Shown here piece after piece: positions 23,873 to 33,662 of a DNA stretch of 34,062 nucleotides. Under the pieces are notes generated by a model, which saw only the letters and a list, made by a program, of their open reading frames with translations, had not been told where the DNA came from and ran no database searches. The stretch is from Actinomycetes bacterium (lineage in GTDB: Bacteria; Actinomycetota; Thermoleophilia; Gaiellales; F1-60-MAGs149), in contig JANYCN010000034.1 in NCBI GenBank assembly GCA_025360225.1, positions 1 to 34,062 of the forward strand, given 5' to 3'. The translations under genes were made by a program, and so were the position numbers. Each line of letters begins with the position of its first letter. The stretch's first letter is position 1.

Positions 23873-23916
23873 ACGTGCGTGCACCGCCGCTCACCGGCAC
23901 AAGAAGGAGCCCTCTC

Positions 23917-24345
23917 GTGCAGCAGCTCGTCGTGTTCTCACTCGGTTCGGAAGAGTACGGCCTGCCGATCACGCAGGTACAGGAGATCATCCGCTACTCG
24001 CGCCCGCGAACGGTTCCATCCGCGCCCATGAGCGTGCGCGGCGTGATCAACCTGCGCGGCAAGATCATCCCGGTCGTCGACCTGAAGTCACGCCTCGGGC
24101 TCGACGCGGTCGAGCCGGACGAGGCAAAGATCGTCATCATCGAGGCGGGAGCGGTCACCGCCGGTCTGATCGTCGACGAGGTCGATGAGGTGCTCACCGT
24201 CGACGAGGATCAGCTTGAGCAAGCCCCGACCGGAGACGTCGGCTACATCCAGGCCGTCGCGAAGGTTGGCGATCGGTTGCTCGTCCTGCTCGACCTCGAT
24301 GCGATGTTCGCCAGCGATGCCGACTCCGACCTGATGGCGGCCTGA
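23917..24345 (+). CDS. cheW: Chemotaxis coupling protein CheW
   Basis: 142 residues, one CheW/SH3-like domain that bridges chemoreceptors and CheA. VVFSLGSEEYGLPITQVQEIIR, RGVINLRGKIIPVVDL and LIVDEVDEVLTV are typical. GTG 23917 has AGAAGGAG upstream at good spacing. First gene of a chemotaxis operon reaching cheY. No receptor gene is present in the window. Confidence 0.93.
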   Translation: MQQLVVFSLGSEEYGLPITQVQEIIRYSRPRTVPSAPMSVRGVINLRGKIIPVVDLKSRLGLDAVEPDEAKIVIIEAGAVTAGLIVDEVDEVLTVDEDQLEQAPTGDVGYIQAVAKVGDRLLVLLDLDAMFASDADSDLMAA

Positions 24346-24352
24346 TCAGCTG

Positions 24353-25522
24353 ATGGCCTTGCTCAGCGCCAACGCGTCCCGCGCGAGGATCCGGGCAGTC
24401 GTCTGCGACGACTCCCCTTTCATGCGCAAGCTCCTCTGCGACGCGCTCGGCGCGTGCGGTGTCGAGGTCATCGGCCAGGCCGCCAACGGCGCCGAGGCGC
24501 TTGCCGCGTGCGCCAAGCTGCGCCCCGACGTGATGACGCTCGACCTGCAGATGCCCGGCATCTCCGGGATGGAGGTCCTCCGAAAGCTCCCGCCGGGCGG
24601 ACCGGGCGTGATCGTCGTCTCGGCGTACACCGATGAGGGCTCGGCGCTCGCCGTCGAGGCGTTGTCGATCGGCGCGGCCGAGGTGATCCGCAAGCCCGGC
24701 GCCGACACGCCGCTCGCGCGTTTCGCGGCGGACATCGGTGCCAGCGTGCAGGCAGCGGCTGCATCGCGGACCGGCGGTCGCGTCGGTGCGAGCGTGCGCC
24801 GTGCTCCCGCACCGCCGCCCCCGGCGAGACGCGACGAACGCGTTCCGCCGCGTCCCGATCGCGCGGCGCCGCCGCGGTTGCGACACGCTCCGTCCAACGC
24901 CCCTGTCGCGCCGGTCGCGCCGGTACGCCTCTCGGCGCCGTCAGGATCAGGCCGCAGGATGCAGCGACCGCTCGTCGTCGTCGCATCGTCCACCGGTGGC
25001 CCGAAGGCCCTGGCCGAGTTCCTACCGAAGCTGCCGAACCCGTGCGGCGCGGGCGTCGTCGTCGTGCAGCACATGCCACCGGGCTTCACCGGCTCGCTCG
25101 CGAAACGCCTTGACTCGCTCAGCCGTCTGAACGTGCGGGAAGCGGTTTCCGGTGACAAGATCGAGCCAGGCGTGGCGCTTCTCGCCCCTGGCGGGTATCA
25201 CCTCCGCGTCCGCGCGTCCTCGGTGCAGCTGACCGAGGAGGCCGCGATCGGCGGGTTGCGGCCGCGCGCCGACATCACCATCGAGGACGCCGCTCGCGAG
25301 TGGCCAGACCGCTGCGTGCTGGTGGTCCTCACCGGGATGGGGAACGACGCGACGAAGGGCGCGAAGGCCCTTAAGGCGGCCGGTGGGATCGTCCTCGCCG
25401 AGTCCGAGGAGACGTGCGTCGTCTACGGCATGCCCCGCGCCGTGTACGAGGCTGGCTTGACCGACATCGTGCAGCCCCTCAACCAGCTACCGCTCGCCCT
25501 CGCAGGAGTGATCCGGCCATGA
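24353..25522 (+). CDS. cheB: Protein-glutamate methylesterase CheB
   Basis: 389 residues. The receiver domain holds Asp19/Asp20, phospho-acceptor Asp64 (LDLQMPG) and Lys114. A Pro/Arg-rich linker of about 70 residues (135-203) precedes the esterase domain with Ser213 (ASSTGG), His240 (QHMPPGF) and Asp332 (GMGNDA). It removes methyl groups from receptors for adaptation. The linker is longer than in enteric CheB. Starts seven bases after cheW and overlaps cheR by four bases. Confidence 0.94.
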   Translation: MALLSANASRARIRAVVCDDSPFMRKLLCDALGACGVEVIGQAANGAEALAACAKLRPDVMTLDLQMPGISGMEVLRKLPPGGPGVIVVSAYTDEGSALAVEALSIGAAEVIRKPGADTPLARFAADIGASVQAAAASRTGGRVGASVRRAPAPPPPARRDERVPPRPDRAAPPRLRHAPSNAPVAPVAPVRLSAPSGSGRRMQRPLVVVASSTGGPKALAEFLPKLPNPCGAGVVVVQHMPPGFTGSLAKRLDSLSRLNVREAVSGDKIEPGVALLAPGGYHLRVRASSVQLTEEAAIGGLRPRADITIEDAAREWPDRCVLVVLTGMGNDATKGAKALKAAGGIVLAESEETCVVYGMPRAVYEAGLTDIVQPLNQLPLALAGVIRP

Positions 25523-26295
25523 CGGACGACTACATCGAGTTCACGACCGGGTTAAAGCGCCTCACCGGCGTCGACCTGTCGTCCTACAAACGTGGCCAGA
25601 TGGAGCGGCGGATCCGCAGCTACGTGCAGCGAAAGAGCGCGCGAACGCTTCCGGAGTTCCTCCGCGAGCTCGGATCGTCGCAGGAGGAGCTCGATGGGTT
25701 CCTCGACCGCATCACGATCAACGTGTCAGAGCTCTACCGCAACCCGGAGCAGTACGAGACCCTGCGAACGAAGGTGATCCCCGAGCTGAAGCGGTCTGGT
25801 GGCTCGTTGAAGGTCTGGAGCGCCGGCTGCAGCTACGGCGCGGAGGCCTACACCCTCGCCTGCATGTTGAACGAGGAGCTCGCCGGCGGTCGGTTCGAGA
25901 TCGTCGGCTCTGACATCGACAAGCGGATCGTGGCGCGCGCACAGCGCGGCTGGTTCAGCGAGGCCGACATGCGTTCGGTGCCAGCGAAGATCCGGGAGAA
26001 GTACTTCGACCCGTTTGACGGCGGCTACCAGGCAAAGGCGTTGCTGAAAGGCCATCTGCGCTTCAAGCTCGAGGACCTCCTGCGCGATCGCTACCAGACG
26101 GGCTGGGACATGGTCCTCTGCCGAAACGTCGTGATCTACTTCACGGATGAGGCGCGCGACCAGGTGCACGAGGGGATCGCGCGTTCGCTGCGCCCCGGCG
26201 GCTACCTGATGGTCGGCGCGACCGAGCGTGTCACCGACCCCAAGGCGGGCGGCCTCGAACCTGTGTACCCGTTCATCTACCGGAAAGCGGCGTAA
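25519..26295 (+). CDS. cheR: Chemotaxis methyltransferase CheR
   Basis: 258 residues. It methylates receptor glutamates with S-adenosylmethionine. The N-terminal helical domain (YKRGQMERRIRSY) precedes NVSELYRNPEQ, WSAGCSYGAEAYTLA (SAM loop; Ser-Tyr in place of the more common Ser-Thr-Gly) and CRNVVIYF. ATG overlaps the cheB stop as ATGA. Confidence 0.94.
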   Translation: MTDDYIEFTTGLKRLTGVDLSSYKRGQMERRIRSYVQRKSARTLPEFLRELGSSQEELDGFLDRITINVSELYRNPEQYETLRTKVIPELKRSGGSLKVWSAGCSYGAEAYTLACMLNEELAGGRFEIVGSDIDKRIVARAQRGWFSEADMRSVPAKIREKYFDPFDGGYQAKALLKGHLRFKLEDLLRDRYQTGWDMVLCRNVVIYFTDEARDQVHEGIARSLRPGGYLMVGATERVTDPKAGGLEPVYPFIYRKAA

Positions 26296-28373
26296 TGGAC
26301 ATCTCTGACTACCTGCCGATGTTCCTTGCCGAGGGGCGCGAGCATCTCCAGACGCTCAACCTCTCGCTGGTGAAGATCGAGCAGGAACCGAAGGACCGAG
26401 AGACGATCAACGACATCTTCCGCGTCGCGCACACCTTGAAGGGGATGAGCGCGACGATGGGCTTCGCGCGCATGGCGGCGTTGACGCACGAGATGGAGAA
26501 CGTCATGGAGGGCATGAAGACGAGCGAGCACGGCCTCGGTCGCGACGCCCTTGATGCCCTCTTCGGCTGCCTCGACGTGCTCGAGAGCCTCGTTGATGAG
26601 ATCGAGGAGAGCGGGTCGGAGGTGTCTGACCCGTCCGACCTCGTTGCCAAGCTGAAGCAGATCCGCACCGGCGAGATCGCCGCCGAGGCAGCGTTGCAGG
26701 GCGCCGCCCACGAGACGGCGAGCAGCGAGGTCGCTGAGGAGGACCTGAGCGACGCGAACGGCCCGGATGCCGAGGTCATCGCCTCGGTCGAGGCCTCCGG
26801 AATGGTCGTCGCCCGGGTCGACTTCGTCCTCGCCGCTGACGTCGACATGCCCGGCGTCCGCACCTACCTCGCGGTGCGCAAGGCCGAGGAGCACGGCGAG
26901 CTCTTGGCCTGCGAGCCCGACATCGGCGTGATCGAGCGCGGCGAGATCGAGACGACGGAGATCACGGTCTGGGTCGCGACGTCGGACGAGCTCGCCGCGG
27001 TTGCAGAGACGGTTCTGACGCAGGACGGGATCGCGACCTGCACGGCGACCCGCGCCGTCGCTGGCAAGCGACCAGCGGCCGCAGTGACCGCGAAGCCCGC
27101 CGAGCTGGTCGCAGCCGCCCCGCCCCTCGCAGCCGCCCCGACCCTCGCAGCAGCACCGCCACCGGTCGCCGCAAAGGAGACCGCGCCAGCCGCCGGTGGA
27201 GCGAAGCAGCACAAGGCGCAGACGGTGCGTGTCGAGGCCGAGCGCCTCGACCAGCTGATGCACATGATGGGCGAGATGGTGGTGCAGCGCACGCGGCTCG
27301 AGTCGATCGCGCAGCATGCCGGCCAGCCCGACCTGCAGACGGCAGTGAACGATCTCTCGCGCGTCGCCCAGTCGCTCCAGCAGATGGTCATGCAGGTACG
27401 GATGGTGCCGGTCGAGAGCGTCTTCATGCGCTTCCCGCGGATGGTGCGCGACATCGCATCGAAGCTGGGGAAGACGGTCGACCTGCAGATCAAGGGCGAG
27501 GACACCGAGCTCGATCGCACGGTCGTCGAGGCGCTCGGTGACCCGCTCGTGCATCTCGTGCGCAACGCGATGGACCACGGCCTTGAGGGGCCGGACGAGC
27601 GCACGGCGAACGGCAAGCCACCGGGAGGCACGCTCGAGATCTCGGCCGAGCACGCAGGCGGCGAGGTGCTGATCCGCGTGCGCGAGGACGGACGCGGCAT
27701 CAACGCCGCACGGGTCGCGAAGATCGCGGCCGAGCGCGGTCTGATCACCGCCGACCAGGTGCCGAACATCACGACGGAGGACGCGATCGAGCTCCTCTTC
27801 GAGCCCGGCTTCTCGACAGCAGAGGTGACGACGGACATCTCCGGACGCGGCGTCGGGATGGACGCGGTGCGCACGATGGTGCGCAACCTCGGCGGTGACT
27901 GCACGATCACGTCGGTCCTTGGCAAGGGCTCGACGGCGACGATCCGCCTGCCGCTGTCGCTGGCGATCCTGCCGGCGCTGCTGGTCGAGGTGAACGACGC
28001 GCCGTACGCCCTCCCCCTCGAGCGTGTCGAGCAGACGATCCGCATCTCCGACTACACGCTGCGCTCGATCAAGGGTGCGAAGGCGATCGTGCTGCGGGAG
28101 AAGATCCTGCCCCTCTACGACCTCGGCTGGCTCCTTGGCGGCACGTCGATCGACCCGACGAACGCCGCGGCGGTCGTCTGCCGCGCCGGTGCAAACCGCG
28201 TCGGCCTGCTCGTCGAGAAGCTCGTCGGCCAGCAGGAGCTGGTGACGCGACCGCTGCCGGCCGTGACCGACGCGCAGCGCGCGCTCGTCTCTGGCGGCGC
28301 GGTCCTCGGCAACGGGCAGATCGCGCTGATCGTCGACCTCGACGCCCTCGGCAAGCAGACGAAGGCGGCGTGA
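26295..28373 (+). CDS. cheA: Chemotaxis histidine kinase CheA
   Basis: 692 residues. Domains in order: HPt with phospho-acceptor His46 (RVAHTLKGMSATMGF); a CheY-binding P2-like domain at about 170-255; an Ala/Pro linker (about 262-300); dimerisation helices (LDQLMHMMGEMVVQRTR); HATPase with N-box LVRNAMDHGLE, REDGRGI and GRGVGMDAVR; and a C-terminal CheW-like regulatory domain. It phosphorylates CheY and CheB in response to receptors. ATG overlaps the cheR stop (TAATG). Confidence 0.95.
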   Translation: MDISDYLPMFLAEGREHLQTLNLSLVKIEQEPKDRETINDIFRVAHTLKGMSATMGFARMAALTHEMENVMEGMKTSEHGLGRDALDALFGCLDVLESLVDEIEESGSEVSDPSDLVAKLKQIRTGEIAAEAALQGAAHETASSEVAEEDLSDANGPDAEVIASVEASGMVVARVDFVLAADVDMPGVRTYLAVRKAEEHGELLACEPDIGVIERGEIETTEITVWVATSDELAAVAETVLTQDGIATCTATRAVAGKRPAAAVTAKPAELVAAAPPLAAAPTLAAAPPPVAAKETAPAAGGAKQHKAQTVRVEAERLDQLMHMMGEMVVQRTRLESIAQHAGQPDLQTAVNDLSRVAQSLQQMVMQVRMVPVESVFMRFPRMVRDIASKLGKTVDLQIKGEDTELDRTVVEALGDPLVHLVRNAMDHGLEGPDERTANGKPPGGTLEISAEHAGGEVLIRVREDGRGINAARVAKIAAERGLITADQVPNITTEDAIELLFEPGFSTAEVTTDISGRGVGMDAVRTMVRNLGGDCTITSVLGKGSTATIRLPLSLAILPALLVEVNDAPYALPLERVEQTIRISDYTLRSIKGAKAIVLREKILPLYDLGWLLGGTSIDPTNAAAVVCRAGANRVGLLVEKLVGQQELVTRPLPAVTDAQRALVSGGAVLGNGQIALIVDLDALGKQTKAA

Positions 28374-28969
28374 TGTCGGCCGATCCTGCCTACAACGAGC
28401 TCGAGCTCTCGGCGATCCAGGAGGTCGCGAACATCGGCACCGGTAACGCCGCAACGGCGCTCGCCCAGCTGATCAACCGTGCCGTTGACATCGGCGTGCC
28501 AAAGGCGGAGCTCGTGCCGCTCGCCGAGGCGGCCGAGCGCATCGGGCCGCTCGAGAGCATGGTCGTCGCGGTGTTGACCCCGGTGAAGGGCATGATGCCG
28601 GCTTCGATGTTGCTGGCCTTCCCGTACGAGTCGGCGGACGCGCTGTGCGGCATGCTCGGGTGCGCCGCCGACACGGAGATCGGCCACTCCTGCCTGCAGG
28701 AGATCGGCAACATCCTCACCGGGTCGTACACGACGGCGATCGCCGGAATGACGGGGATTGACATCGAGCCCGAGCCGCCGCTGCTGGCGTTCGACATGCT
28801 CGGCTCCGTGATCGACTCGGTCCTTGCACTGTCGGTCGAGACGAGCGACTCCGTGTTGTTCCTGCAGACCGCGATCACCGTCGAGGGCGAGCCGTGCAAC
28901 TTCGGCTTCCTCTTCGTCCCGCGCGAGGGTGCCGTTGACCAGCTCCTGATCGCGCTCGGGCTTGGGTGA
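28373..28969 (+). CDS. cheC: CheY-P phosphatase CheC
   Basis: 198 residues. Both CheC active sites are intact and match S-x3-E-x2-N-x22-P exactly: Ser13/Glu17/Asn20/Pro43 and Ser106/Glu110/Asn113 with Pro136. It dephosphorylates CheY-P and pairs with CheD in receptor adaptation. The start is ATG 28373 (TGATG with cheA); GTG 28370, immediately before, is equally possible. It is followed directly by cheD, as in Bacillus-type chemotaxis. Confidence 0.92.
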   Translation: MSADPAYNELELSAIQEVANIGTGNAATALAQLINRAVDIGVPKAELVPLAEAAERIGPLESMVVAVLTPVKGMMPASMLLAFPYESADALCGMLGCAADTEIGHSCLQEIGNILTGSYTTAIAGMTGIDIEPEPPLLAFDMLGSVIDSVLALSVETSDSVLFLQTAITVEGEPCNFGFLFVPREGAVDQLLIALGLG

Positions 28970-28976
28970 GCGGTCG

Positions 28977-29465
28977 ATGAGCGAGCGACACATGGTGCGG
29001 ATGGCCGAGCAGGCGATCTCGAACAAGGGAAGCGACGTCCTCGTCTCCCTCGGGCTCGGCTCCTGCATTGGCCTTGCGCTGATCGACGAGAGCGCCGGCG
29101 TCGCCGGACTCGTGCACATCGTTCTCCCGAGATCACCGGATAGCGGTCCCGGTTCGACGCCGTCGAAGTTCGCTGACACGGCGGTTCCCGGGCTGCTCGA
29201 GGCGGTGATGCGGGCCGGCGGCCGGAACGGTCGCCTGCGCGCCGTGCTCTGCGGCGGGGCCCACATGTTCGGCACCGCCGGGACGAACCCCGTCATGCAG
29301 ATCGGCGCGCGGAACGCGGAGAGCACGCTCGAGGCTCTCACGAGGCTCCGTATCCCGGTTCGCGCGAAGGACACGGGCGGTTCTTCCGGTCGCTCGATCG
29401 AGGTCAACGTCGCCTCCGGGGCCGTGTCGGTGCGCGGCGTCGGGCAACCATCGAAGCAGCTCTGA
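28977..29465 (+). CDS. cheD: Chemoreceptor glutamine deamidase CheD
   Basis: 162 residues. Catalytic Cys30 (GLGSCIGLAL) and His47 (GLVHIVLP) are present; the Thr that completes the described triad appears to be Ser24. FADTAVPGLLEAV and GGAHMF are also family motifs. It deamidates receptor glutamines and binds CheC. ATG 28977 is chosen over a TTG at 28962 that overlaps cheC. Confidence 0.91.
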   Translation: MSERHMVRMAEQAISNKGSDVLVSLGLGSCIGLALIDESAGVAGLVHIVLPRSPDSGPGSTPSKFADTAVPGLLEAVMRAGGRNGRLRAVLCGGAHMFGTAGTNPVMQIGARNAESTLEALTRLRIPVRAKDTGGSSGRSIEVNVASGAVSVRGVGQPSKQL

Positions 29466-29639: not shown

Positions 29640-30650
29640 ATGGCGCACGGCAGCGACACCCTTAGCCAGTCCGAGATCGACGCGCTCCTCGCGGCGGTCG
29701 CGACGGCCCCTCCGTCGGCTGCGGGGGCCGAGCTGTCGACCGGCGTACGCGTCCAGAACATGGACTTCCGACGCCCGTCGAAGTTCAACAAGGACCAGCT
29801 GCGCACGCTCGAGATGCTGCACGACACGTTCGCCCGCCTCGGCTCGACCTACCTCTCGGGCGCGATGCGCAGCGTCGCCGACATCTCGGTGCTCGGCGCC
29901 GAGCAGGTCACCTACGGCGAGTTCATCTCGTCCCTGCCGGTCCCGGCGCTCACGGCGATCCTCGAGCTCGAGCCGCTCGGTACGAACGCGATCCTCGCGA
30001 TCGACCTACCGCTGGTCTTCTCGCTGATCGACCGTTTGCTCGGCGGCACGGGCCAGGGGGCGCCTCGCCTGCGCGAGCTGACCGACATCGAGCTCTCCCT
30101 CTCGCGCACGATCATCAACCGGCTCCTCGCAGAGCTGTCGACATCATGGTCGGAGCTCGTCGGCGTCGACTTTCGCCTGCGCCACACCGAGATGAACCCC
30201 CAGTTCGCGCAGATCGCGCCGCCGACCGAGCTGTCAGTGCTGCTGTCGTTCCAGCTCCGTGTTGCCGATTCAACAGGAGTGATGACGCTCTGCCTGCCCT
30301 GGCGGTCGATCGAGACCGTCGCTCCGAGCCTGACGGCAAACTCCTACTTCTCCGGCGTGCGCGCCGGCGTCGCTGGCCTTGACCTCACCGAGCCCCTTGC
30401 CAACGTCCTGATCGGCGTCCGGGCCGAGGTAGGGGCCGTCGACCTCTCGATCTCGGAGGTCCTGTCGCTGCGCGAGGGCGACGTCGTGCGCCTTGGCGTG
30501 CCCGTCGAGGACGGCATCACGTTGTTTGCCGGAGAGACCGCTGCCTACCGGGTCGTGCCGGGCGCCCATCGCCGACAGCTCGCCGTGCAGGTGCACGACC
30601 GGATCACACGGCCGCTCCCGCCCGCCGATGCCGATGGGGTCACACCGTGA
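29640..30650 (+). CDS. fliM: Flagellar motor switch protein FliM
   Basis: 336 residues. N-terminal CheY-P-binding peptide LSQSEIDALL (8-17), then the CheC-like middle domain (FNKDQLRTLEMLHDTFARLGSTYLS in its first helix, DRLLGGTG) and a C-terminal SpoA domain (LSISEVLSLREGDVVRLG, DGITLFAGETAAYRV). It forms the C-ring and transmits CheY-P binding to rotation. ATG 29640 stands two bases after the small peptide gene and its stop overlaps fliY by four bases. Confidence 0.94.
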   Translation: MAHGSDTLSQSEIDALLAAVATAPPSAAGAELSTGVRVQNMDFRRPSKFNKDQLRTLEMLHDTFARLGSTYLSGAMRSVADISVLGAEQVTYGEFISSLPVPALTAILELEPLGTNAILAIDLPLVFSLIDRLLGGTGQGAPRLRELTDIELSLSRTIINRLLAELSTSWSELVGVDFRLRHTEMNPQFAQIAPPTELSVLLSFQLRVADSTGVMTLCLPWRSIETVAPSLTANSYFSGVRAGVAGLDLTEPLANVLIGVRAEVGAVDLSISEVLSLREGDVVRLGVPVEDGITLFAGETAAYRVVPGAHRRQLAVQVHDRITRPLPPADADGVTP

Positions 30651-32170
30651 ACCACATCGAGGCGGTCGAACGGGCGACGGAGCTCACCGCCGGGGCGTGC
30701 GCCGAGGTGCTCGGCATCCTCGTCGGTGCCCCCGGGTCGTTCACCGACGTCAGCGTTGACGAAGAGCCTGATCCGTGGGGCTCGGTGACGTTCCCGCTCG
30801 TCGCGGTGCGCATCGGCTTCATCGAGGGGATTACCGGCGAGGACATGTTCGTGATCGAGCCGGAGCAGGCGCGACAGCTCGCCACATCGATGATGGGGAT
30901 GGCGGAGACCGACGCGACGGGCGAGCTGAACGAGATCGAGATCTCGGCGGTGTCCGAGGCGATGAACCAGATGATGGGGAAGGTCGCGACGGCGCTCGCC
31001 GAGGCCCTCTCCCGAACGACGGACATCGCAACGCCGCAGACCCGCTACCTCAAGAACCAGGAGGCAGCCGAGGCGCTCGGCGAGGCACGCTACACCTCGC
31101 GTTTCACGCTGAAGGCCGGCAAGCTCACCGCGAGGATCGTCCAGCTCGTGCCGCAGGATCTCGCCGACGTGCTGCTCGCGGCGTTCGACAGCGCCGCGCT
31201 CGCAGAGGCGGTGCTTGGCAGCGAGCACGCGAACAAGATCGCCCGGCTCAACGACGAGACCTACGCGGCGGTGGAGCGCACCGCAAGGATCGCCGCTGAG
31301 TCATCGGCCGAGGTGTTGACCACCCTCCTCGGCTCGAAGGTGACGGCGACGCTGCCGGAGATCGACGTGAAGCCCGTCGACCCGCTCGGCGAGCTCAGCT
31401 ACCCGCTCGTCACCGTCGAGGTCTCCTACGTCTCGGGCGTCAACGGCGCGAACCTGTTCGCCCTCACGCCGGCGCAGTCAGCGACCTTGGCCGCCGTGAT
31501 GATGGGGTCGGACGAGCCGACCGGCGACGGGCTCTCGGAGCTCGAGCTCTCGGCGGTCTCTGAGGCAATGAACCAGATGATGGGCTCGGCGACGAACATT
31601 CTCGCCGACACCCTGAGCCTTGACATCGAGGTTGCGCCGCCGGTCTGCGAGGTGATCCAGAACGTCGAACAGGCACGTGCGACGTTCGAGCATCCGGCGT
31701 ACTGCGCGCGGTTCCGGATCGTCTCGGACAAGCTCACGGCGGACGTCGTGCAGCTCGTGCCGGCCGACTTCGCGCTGCACCTGCAGTCTGCGTTCGCCGC
31801 TGCAGACGTCGGACGCGCTGTAGCCGCTGCCCCGATCGGCGGGGACGTCGCGCCCGCAGCGAGCGCGAGCAGCGCGACCGCGGCGGCGAACAAGGCGGCA
31901 GCGACGGCGCCTGCAGGAGCGCTGCATCCCGACACGTTCCGCACGGTGAAGGTGCGTGTCTCGGCCGAGCTCGGCCGCTCCAAGCTCGAGGTCGCGCGGG
32001 TGATGAACATGCCTCCCGGAGCGATCGTCGAGCTCGATCGCACTCCCACTGACCCCATCGACATTCTCGTCAACGGCCGGCCGTTCGCCCGAGCGCGCCT
32101 GGTCCTCGTGGACGGCGAGTACGCCGCCCAGATCGTATCCCTGGAACCACCGCTGCTCAAGACAGCGTAG
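30647..32170 (+). CDS. fliY: Enlarged FliY/FliN-type switch protein with two CheC-like modules
   Basis: 507 residues against about 380 for known FliY. Two tandem CheC-like modules (about 1-190 and 205-390, period 202) are followed by an Ala-rich linker (390-425) and a C-terminal SpoA/FliN domain (432-507: VRVSAELGRSKLEVARVM). Each module keeps one S-x3-E-x2-N-x22-P phosphatase signature (Glu104/Asn107/Pro130 and Glu306/Asn309/Pro332), inside SAVSEAMNQMMG. The first half of each module lacks a second site. There is no N-terminal LSQxEIDxLL peptide. GTG start overlaps the fliM stop. It is the C-ring component and probably the main CheY-P phosphatase. Confidence 0.9.
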   Translation: MNHIEAVERATELTAGACAEVLGILVGAPGSFTDVSVDEEPDPWGSVTFPLVAVRIGFIEGITGEDMFVIEPEQARQLATSMMGMAETDATGELNEIEISAVSEAMNQMMGKVATALAEALSRTTDIATPQTRYLKNQEAAEALGEARYTSRFTLKAGKLTARIVQLVPQDLADVLLAAFDSAALAEAVLGSEHANKIARLNDETYAAVERTARIAAESSAEVLTTLLGSKVTATLPEIDVKPVDPLGELSYPLVTVEVSYVSGVNGANLFALTPAQSATLAAVMMGSDEPTGDGLSELELSAVSEAMNQMMGSATNILADTLSLDIEVAPPVCEVIQNVEQARATFEHPAYCARFRIVSDKLTADVVQLVPADFALHLQSAFAAADVGRAVAAAPIGGDVAPAASASSATAAANKAAATAPAGALHPDTFRTVKVRVSAELGRSKLEVARVMNMPPGAIVELDRTPTDPIDILVNGRPFARARLVLVDGEYAAQIVSLEPPLLKTA

Positions 32171-32186
32171 AAGGAGGAACATCGGT

Positions 32187-32546
32187 ATGGCACGAGTGCT
32201 CATCGCAGACGACGCAGCCTTCATGAGGATGATGATCAAGAACATCCTCAGCCAGAACGGCCACGAGGTGGTCGGAGAGGCCGAGAACGGTGCGCAGGCC
32301 GTCACGAAGTACGCCGAGCTGAAGCCCGACGTGACCACGATGGACATCACGATGCCCGAGATGGACGGCATCGCCGCCCTCAAGGGCATCCTCGCGGCCG
32401 ACCCGACCGCGAAGATCGTGATGTGCTCGGCACTCGGCCAGGAGGCGAAGGTGATCGAGTCGATCCGCTCCGGCGCGAAGGACTTCGTCGTGAAGCCCTT
32501 CCAGCAGGATCGCGTCCTCTCGGCGGTCGCCAAGGCTCTGGGGTGA
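32187..32546 (+). CDS. cheY: Chemotaxis response regulator CheY
   Basis: 119 residues, a single receiver domain. Asp8/Asp9, phospho-acceptor Asp53 (MDITMPEMDG), Ser81 and Lys103 (VKPF) are all present. AAFMRMMIKNIL is typical of Gram-positive CheY. AGAAGGAGG precedes the ATG with good spacing. It binds FliM, perhaps the 54-residue peptide, and is dephosphorylated by FliY and CheC. Last gene of the operon; a hairpin follows. Confidence 0.94.
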   Translation: MARVLIADDAAFMRMMIKNILSQNGHEVVGEAENGAQAVTKYAELKPDVTTMDITMPEMDGIAALKGILAADPTAKIVMCSALGQEAKVIESIRSGAKDFVVKPFQQDRVLSAVAKALG

Positions 32547-32693: not shown

Positions 32694-33662
32694 ATGGTAC
32701 GGACATCCTCTGAGAGCGCTGCGCTCGTTGGCCGAACGCTCGTCACAGGGAGCGCCGGCTTCGTTGGCGCCCACCTCCTCTCGACGCTCGACGCGGCGGG
32801 GTTCGAGGTGGTCGGCGCGAGCCGGGCAGAGGCTGACCTCGCTGACCGCTCTGCCGTCGTTGCCCTTCTCCGGCGCGAGAAGATCGTCACCGTCGTCCAC
32901 GCCGCCGGGCGTGTCGGCGGTATCGCGGCGAACGTCGCCGACCCGGTTGGCTTCTTCACGGAGAACCTCGCCGTCGGGCAGGCGGTCGTGCTCGGCGCGC
33001 ACGAGGCCGGTGTCGAGCGTCTCTTGAACCTGTCGTCAAGCTGCGTCTACCCCCGCGACCGCTCGCGGCTCGTCGAGGAGGACCTGCTCACCGGTCAGCT
33101 CGAGCCGACGAACGAGGGGTACGCGCTGGCGAAGCTCGCGGTGATGCGGCTCTGCGACTGGCTCGCGGCGACCTCAGACGACCGCTGGTACCGCACGCTC
33201 GTGCCGTGCAACCTGTACGGGCCCGGCGACTCCTTCGACCCGGTGCGCGGCCACCTCGTGAGCCGTGCGATCGCGAAGGTCGTCGACGCGCTGGACGCGG
33301 ACGCCTCGGCGGTCGAGATCTGGGGAGACGGCATGGCGCGACGGGAGTTCCTCCACGTACGAGACCTCGCGCGCGCGGTCGCGTTCACGTTGCCGCTGCT
33401 CGAGTCGCTCCCGCAGGCCCTGAACGTCGGCAGCGGCGAGGACCGCTCGGTCAACGGGTGGTACGAAGCCGTCGCGGCCGCCGCTGGGTTCGGCGGCCGC
33501 TTCACGCACGACCTCGACCGGCCGGTGGGAATGGCGCGGAAGCTCCTCGACGTGTCGCGCCTGACGGCGCTCGGGTTCACGCCGAGCACGACCGTCGACG
33601 TCGGGTTGCGCGAGACGATCACGCACTACCGGACGTTTTGCACGCAAGCCGTGGCGGCATGA
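32694..33662 (+). CDS. NAD(P)-dependent epimerase, GDP-L-fucose-synthase-like
   Basis: 322 residues of the extended SDR family. Cofactor loop GSAGFVGAHL (19-28), active-site Ser115, Cys117, Tyr143 and Lys147 (SSSCVYP, YALAK), and the fucose-synthase hallmarks AAGRVGGIAANVADP, LEPTNEGYA, PCNLYGPGDSFDP and REFLHVRDLA. It probably makes GDP-L-fucose or a related GDP-deoxyhexose by epimerisation and reduction. ATG 32694 lies nine bases from the P3 -10. It overlaps the next gene by four bases. With a flagellar-type promoter it may supply sugars for flagellin or surface polymer glycosylation; this is inference. Confidence 0.87.
   Translation: MVRTSSESAALVGRTLVTGSAGFVGAHLLSTLDAAGFEVVGASRAEADLADRSAVVALLRREKIVTVVHAAGRVGGIAANVADPVGFFTENLAVGQAVVLGAHEAGVERLLNLSSSCVYPRDRSRLVEEDLLTGQLEPTNEGYALAKLAVMRLCDWLAATSDDRWYRTLVPCNLYGPGDSFDPVRGHLVSRAIAKVVDALDADASAVEIWGDGMARREFLHVRDLARAVAFTLPLLESLPQALNVGSGEDRSVNGWYEAVAAAAGFGGRFTHDLDRPVGMARKLLDVSRLTALGFTPSTTVDVGLRETITHYRTFCTQAVAA

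What the first reader, a model, noticed from the sequence alone, without database searches (positions are those of the whole stretch)
30647..32170. FliY with tandem duplicated CheC modules
Two 202-residue-spaced modules each keep one complete S-x3-E-x2-N-x22-P site, then SpoA. Ordinary FliY has one CheC-like domain with two sites. This looks like a duplication followed by loss of one site per module, changing C-ring geometry or phosphatase control.
Basis: seen in the sequence. Interest (0 to 1): 0.72.

Follow-up and report, generated by a model that had tools for sequence, protein, structure and literature searches.

The report
Motor switch protein with doubled phosphatase
This gene encodes a flagellar motor switch protein (FliY) in which the domain that switches off the chemotaxis signal is present twice in a row, a rare arrangement already represented in Bacillus-type bacteria but here evolved separately from an unusual one-site version.

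Summary
Observation confirmed. ORF 30647-32170 (+, 507 aa) has two full CheC-fold modules (42% identical, 202 residues apart), each with exactly one intact S-x3-E-x2-N-x22-P site, then a linker and a SpoA domain. AlphaFold2 folds both modules confidently.

In the window's class (shared with Solirubrobacter, so Thermoleophilia) the same che-operon slot usually holds a single-module FliY that already lacks site 1. Its modules and the tandem modules form one clade (support 100/100) apart from all two-site FliY. So site 1 was most likely lost first and the module doubled later, in one family (3 genomes). Doubling restores two sites per chain.

Tandem-CheC FliY is a known architecture: NCBIfam NF005275/PRK06782, and Bacillota genomes with two or three modules. 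Those arose independently and keep both sites in most modules. What seems unreported is the one-site FliY class and a pattern: all 11 tandem genomes checked also encode a separate FliN, against 1 of 22 genomes with ordinary two-site FliY.

Likely function: a C-ring-docked CheY-P phosphatase freed from the structural FliN role. Phosphatase activity and ring geometry were not tested. New variant of a known kind.

The parts
30647..32170 (+). fliY, 507 aa, tandem CheC-CheC-SpoA
   Evidence: passes the NCBIfam FliY equivalog cut-off (237.6 vs 218 bits)
30647..31252 (+). CheC-like module 1 (residues 1-202)
   Evidence: Z 22.9 to T. maritima FliY 4hyn
31253..31858 (+). CheC-like module 2 (residues 203-404; folded part ends about residue 393)
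   Evidence: Z 16.6 to CheC 1xkr
30944..31036 (+). intact phosphatase site of module 1 (residues 100-130, S100/E104/N107/P130)
31550..31642 (+). intact phosphatase site of module 2 (residues 302-332, S302/E306/N309/P332)
30653..30724 (+). helix of the degenerate site 1 of module 1 (E and N replaced by R and E)
31253..31330 (+). helix of the degenerate site 1 of module 2 (E and N replaced by R and R)
31829..31936 (+). Ala-rich linker, predicted disordered
   Evidence: pLDDT < 50; 15-40% identity between relatives
31940..32140 (+). SpoA / FliMN_C domain
29640..30650 (+). fliM, with N-terminal LSQSEIDALL CheY-binding-type peptide that FliY lacks
32187..32546 (+). cheY
28370..28969 (+). cheC, stand-alone, two CheC half-sites
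28962..29465 (+). cheD
26295..28373 (+). cheA
23875..26295 (+). cheW (23875-24345), cheB (24353-25522), cheR (25519-26295), start of the operon
   Evidence: same gene order in relatives

Best explanation
It is a FliY-type CheY-P phosphatase docked on the flagellar C-ring through its SpoA domain, with the CheC module doubled. Shown: two complete CheC folds with one intact catalytic site each; a conserved cheW-cheB-cheR-cheA-cheC-cheD-fliM-fliY-cheY operon; a separate FliN elsewhere in the genome; an N-terminal CheY-binding-type peptide on FliM but none on FliY; single one-site modules as the nearest group. Inferred: the ancestral che-operon FliY, relieved of the structural FliN role, lost site 1 and the N-terminal tether; in this family the module was then duplicated in tandem, giving back two catalytic sites per chain. 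CheY-P captured by FliM would be dephosphorylated beside the ring by either module, swinging on the flexible linker. Module 1 evolves faster but keeps its catalytic residues, so it is probably still active.
For: Motifs and module identity; fold of both modules; one-site plus tandem clade 100/100; conserved operon; 14 of 15 one-site or tandem genomes versus 0 of 6 two-site genomes of the class have a separate FliN; no EIDALL-type peptide in one-site or tandem FliY; module 1 dN/dS about 0.34 versus 0.13 for module 2, catalytic S/E/N kept in 3 of 3 genomes.
Against: No activity data. The best tree puts module 1 with the single modules rather than with module 2 (95/87); sisterhood of modules 1 and 2 is only not rejected (p-AU 0.215), so an older duplication with later module loss in other families is open. 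Module 1 may be drifting (45-64% identity versus 70-87% for module 2). The relative orientation of the modules is unknown (pTM 0.50).
Confidence: 0.68

Rival explanations
1. One reading: an ordinary two-site module was duplicated, then each copy lost one site.
For: Two-site FliY is the common state in Bacillota and in one family of the class.
Against: The same site is lost in both modules and in 27 single-module relatives, with R/K at the former Glu in all six tandem modules and 19 of 27 singles; tandem and single one-site modules form a 100/100 clade.
Confidence: 0.08
2. Module 1 is mainly structural: a second FliM-middle-like layer or spacer, and phosphatase work is done by module 2.
For: Module 1 is less conserved; the CheC-fold modules also match FliM middle domains.
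Against: Module 1 keeps S, E, N and P of the site in all three genomes; the site helix is more conserved than the module as a whole (12/19 versus 72/188 invariant).
Confidence: 0.2
3. The duplication predates the split of the one-site lineage, and the other families lost one module.
For: Best tree joins module 1 to the single modules, support 95/87.
Against: Needs at least one further loss; module 1+2 sisterhood not rejected (p-AU 0.215); no tandem form outside the family in 399 class genomes.
Confidence: 0.3
4. Module 1 is an unrelated CheC or CheX fused to a one-site FliY.
For: CheX and CheC profiles match module 1, and stand-alone CheC is encoded three genes upstream.
Against: Module 1 is 42% identical to module 2 over 186 aa and sits in the FliY one-site clade; the stand-alone CheC keeps two CheC half-sites. 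CheC and CheX were not in the tree.
Confidence: 0.04

Closest known systems
NCBIfam NF005275 / PRK06782 'flagellar motor switch protein' (tandem CheC-CheC-SpoA)
   Same: Same domain order; one stretch aligns residues 39-497 to profile 49-513 (E=1e-70). Bacillota members have two modules, lie near che genes and coexist with a separate FliN.
   Different: Scores 239 bits against a cut-off of 681. Members checked (L086, L087, L185, L186) keep both sites in each module (four sites); here one site per module. Their modules fall outside the one-site clade, so the duplication is independent.
Ordinary FliY (NF005995 / PRK08119; T. maritima 4hyn; B. subtilis)
   Same: CheC fold plus SpoA, next to fliM, passes the model cut-off (237.6 vs 218 bits); module fold Z 22.9 to 4hyn.
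   Different: One module with two sites and usually an N-terminal EIDALL-type peptide; normally no separate FliN.
Single-module one-site FliY of Thermoleophilia (for example Solirubrobacter, L106, L126)
   Same: Same operon slot, same loss of site 1 and N-terminal peptide, separate FliN in class relatives.
   Different: One module only, so one site per chain.
FliY of Campylobacter and Helicobacter
   Same: Coexists with FliN (PMC6946799).
   Different: Lacks phosphatase active sites altogether according to PMC6946799.

Membership tests
FliY (CheC-SpoA C-ring phosphatase) | CheC-like domain followed by SpoA | tested here: met
FliY (CheC-SpoA C-ring phosphatase) | score above the NCBIfam NF005995 cut-off | tested here: met
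   237.6 vs 218 bits, summed over three stretches
FliY (CheC-SpoA C-ring phosphatase) | adjacent to fliM in a flagellar or che operon | tested here: met
FliY (CheC-SpoA C-ring phosphatase), canonical two-site form | two catalytic E-x2-N sites within one CheC domain | tested here: not met
   one per module, site 1 lost; this feature varies within FliY and is absent in epsilonproteobacterial FliY (PMC6946799), so it excludes the canonical form, not FliY as such
FliY (CheC-SpoA C-ring phosphatase) | CheY-P phosphatase activity | not testable with these tools
   needs biochemistry
PRK06782 / NF005275 tandem FliY | two CheC modules plus SpoA | tested here: met
PRK06782 / NF005275 tandem FliY | score above curated cut-off | tested here: not met
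   238.9 vs 681 bits
PRK06782 / NF005275 tandem FliY | both sites in each module | tested here: not met
CheC / CheX stand-alone phosphatase | no SpoA domain | tested here: not met
FliM | FliM profile match and N-terminal EIDALL-type peptide | tested here: not met
   only the SpoA part matches TIGR01397 (34 vs 219.6 bits); FliM is the neighbouring gene

The most novel reading that the evidence does not exclude
A separate FliN frees FliY from its structural duty, and freed FliY then evolves in its phosphatase part: repeated tandem doubling or tripling of CheC modules in Bacillota and here, and loss of one site and of the CheY-binding peptide in Thermoleophilia. CheC copy number on the C-ring would be a tunable, convergent control of motor-local CheY-P lifetime.
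Probability: 0.4. Interest if true: 0.55.

Novelty: new variant of a known kind. Interest (0 to 1): 0.38.

Why it matters
FliY is a motor-bound CheY-P phosphatase that ordinarily carries two sites per subunit. This lineage shows the number going from two to one and back to two by a different route, giving a natural set (two-site, one-site, tandem one-site) to test what number and placement of sites do to motor switching. The link between a separate FliN and altered FliY gives a testable rule for how C-ring parts are reshuffled.

Tried and rejected
Searching the family of Fictibacillus for NF005275 found none at the set threshold; the order gave two strong tandem hits. No held paper found describes tandem CheC FliY or one-site FliY in Thermoleophilia; Sircar et al. 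2013 is not held. A module-only alignment failed on wrong coordinates and was not needed. Assembly artefact rejected: three genomes share the architecture. Chance motif rejected. The 82-row tree was a quick tree with two long branches (L132 module 1, L094 module 2); the 35-row careful tree is used for the main claim. C-ring geometry could not be addressed: no multimer modelling and low pTM.

Full report
Observation. The ORF at 30647-32170 (+) encodes 507 residues; its GTG start overlaps the fliM stop and cheY follows after 16 bases. The strict motif S-x3-E-x2-N-x22-P occurs at residues 100 and 302, 202 apart; no shuffle of 20,000 gave two. The two 202-residue halves are 42% identical over 186 aa, E=2e-43. 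Pfam gives CheC twice, CheX twice and FliMN_C once. At the site-1 positions, where ordinary FliY has E and N, module 1 has R and E and module 2 has R and R.

Fold. AlphaFold2 on 24 rows (window and the search for related loci proteins only) gives two complete CheC folds at pLDDT mostly above 90, a weaker hinge at about 181-200 (pLDDT about 58), a disordered linker at about 395-436 and a moderately confident SpoA; pTM is 0.50, so module orientation is not determined. Module 1 aligns with T. maritima FliY 4hyn (Z 22.9, rmsd 2.2, 186 residues) and module 2 with CheC 1xkr (Z 16.6, rmsd 3.4, 188 residues).

Who else has it. In 399 genomes of the class, full-length tandem matches occur only in three genomes of the window's family (window, 73%, 56%). 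The class includes a genome whose FliY is identical to that of Solirubrobacter phytolaccae (L126 = L053), hence Thermoleophilia. Other families of the class carry either a two-site FliY (f3) or a single-module FliY lacking site 1 (f7, f2, f71). The one-site FliY and the tandem FliY share the operon cheW-cheB-cheR-cheA-cheC-cheD-fliM-fliY-cheY; some of the contigs show only part of it. In the f3 genome examined, the two-site FliY sits instead in motA-motB-fliL-fliM-fliY-cheY (L173).

Order of events. A maximum-likelihood tree of 35 modules puts one-site singles and all six tandem modules in one clade (100/100) apart from all two-site FliY. The former catalytic Glu is R or K in all six tandem modules and in 19 of 27 singles. 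One loss of site 1 before duplication is the simplest reading. Whether modules 1 and 2 are sisters is unresolved: the best tree joins module 1 to the singles (95/87), but sisterhood is not rejected (p-AU 0.215).

Constraint. Between the window and its two tandem relatives, module 2 is 87% and 70% identical and module 1 is 64% and 45%; NG86 dN/dS for the nearest pair is about 0.13 and 0.34. Module 1 still keeps S, E, N and P of its site, so it is under weaker constraint but is not obviously a relic.

Known relatives. NCBIfam NF005275 (PRK06782) aligns to the protein nearly end to end, below its cut-off. That model describes tandem FliY: Bacillota hits L086 and L087 and two Bacillales genomes (L185, L186) have two modules and a SpoA, with both sites kept in each module; L132 has three modules. 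These modules lie outside the one-site clade, so the duplications are independent. A B. cereus FliY homologue is reported as required for chemotaxis with exact function unknown, and Bc1629 is listed as a CheC/FliN C-ring protein beside CheA and CheY, with further FliN proteins Bc1661 and Bc1663 (PMC12848376); that Bc1629 is the PRK06782 protein is my inference.

FliN association. The window genome has three SpoA proteins: FliM, FliY, and a 212-aa FliN in a motA-motB-fliL-fliN cluster. In the class, 14 of 15 one-site or tandem genomes have three or more SpoA proteins; all six two-site genomes have two. In Bacillota, 8 of 8 tandem genomes have a short separate SpoA protein, against 1 of 16 single two-site genomes. 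Fisher tests give 1.3e-4 and 1.2e-5, but the genomes are related and were sampled by similarity, so these p-values overstate the evidence. One-site and tandem FliY also lack the EIDALL-type N-terminal peptide, which FliM in the window keeps.

Mechanism. Established knowledge: CheC, CheX and FliY hydrolyse CheY-P through the E-x2-N pair; SpoA domains build the FliN-type base of the C-ring; in B. subtilis FliY is proposed to form a ring outside FliM (PMC7355467). Inference: with FliN doing the structural job, FliY here is a motor-docked phosphatase arm; FliM captures CheY-P, and two modules on a flexible linker supply two sites per chain. Changed C-ring geometry is not supported and was not tested.

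Verdict. Real, ordinary in kind, unusual in detail: a new variant of tandem FliY. The more interesting lead is the association between a separate FliN and altered FliY.

Noticed in passing
L168:4386-5387 (-), window genome contig C16: 333-aa ORF with a CheW-like N-terminal half and a CheC C-terminal part: probable CheW-CheC fusion.
   Followed up: no
L166:7224-7862, window genome contig C60: FliN whose N-terminus carries two FliM-N-like peptides (LSQEEIEKLL, LSPEEIAALIAG); its SpoA matches the C-terminus of the FliY model with a higher score than the FliN models, so it may be a FliY that lost its CheC domain.
   Followed up: partly
L132:5806-8268: Bacillota FliY with three CheC modules and SpoA in one 821-aa frame; the first module has lost the second site (E..G).
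   Followed up: partly
L175 and L176 (G540): One genome of the window's order carries two FliM-FliY gene pairs.
   Followed up: no
L094:6264-7874: Bacillota tandem FliY whose second module has lost both sites while the first keeps both.
   Followed up: no
window 32694-33662 and about 33640 onward: NAD-dependent epimerase and an apparent aminotransferase ORF soon after cheY, possibly sugar synthesis for flagellin or surface glycans.
   Followed up: no
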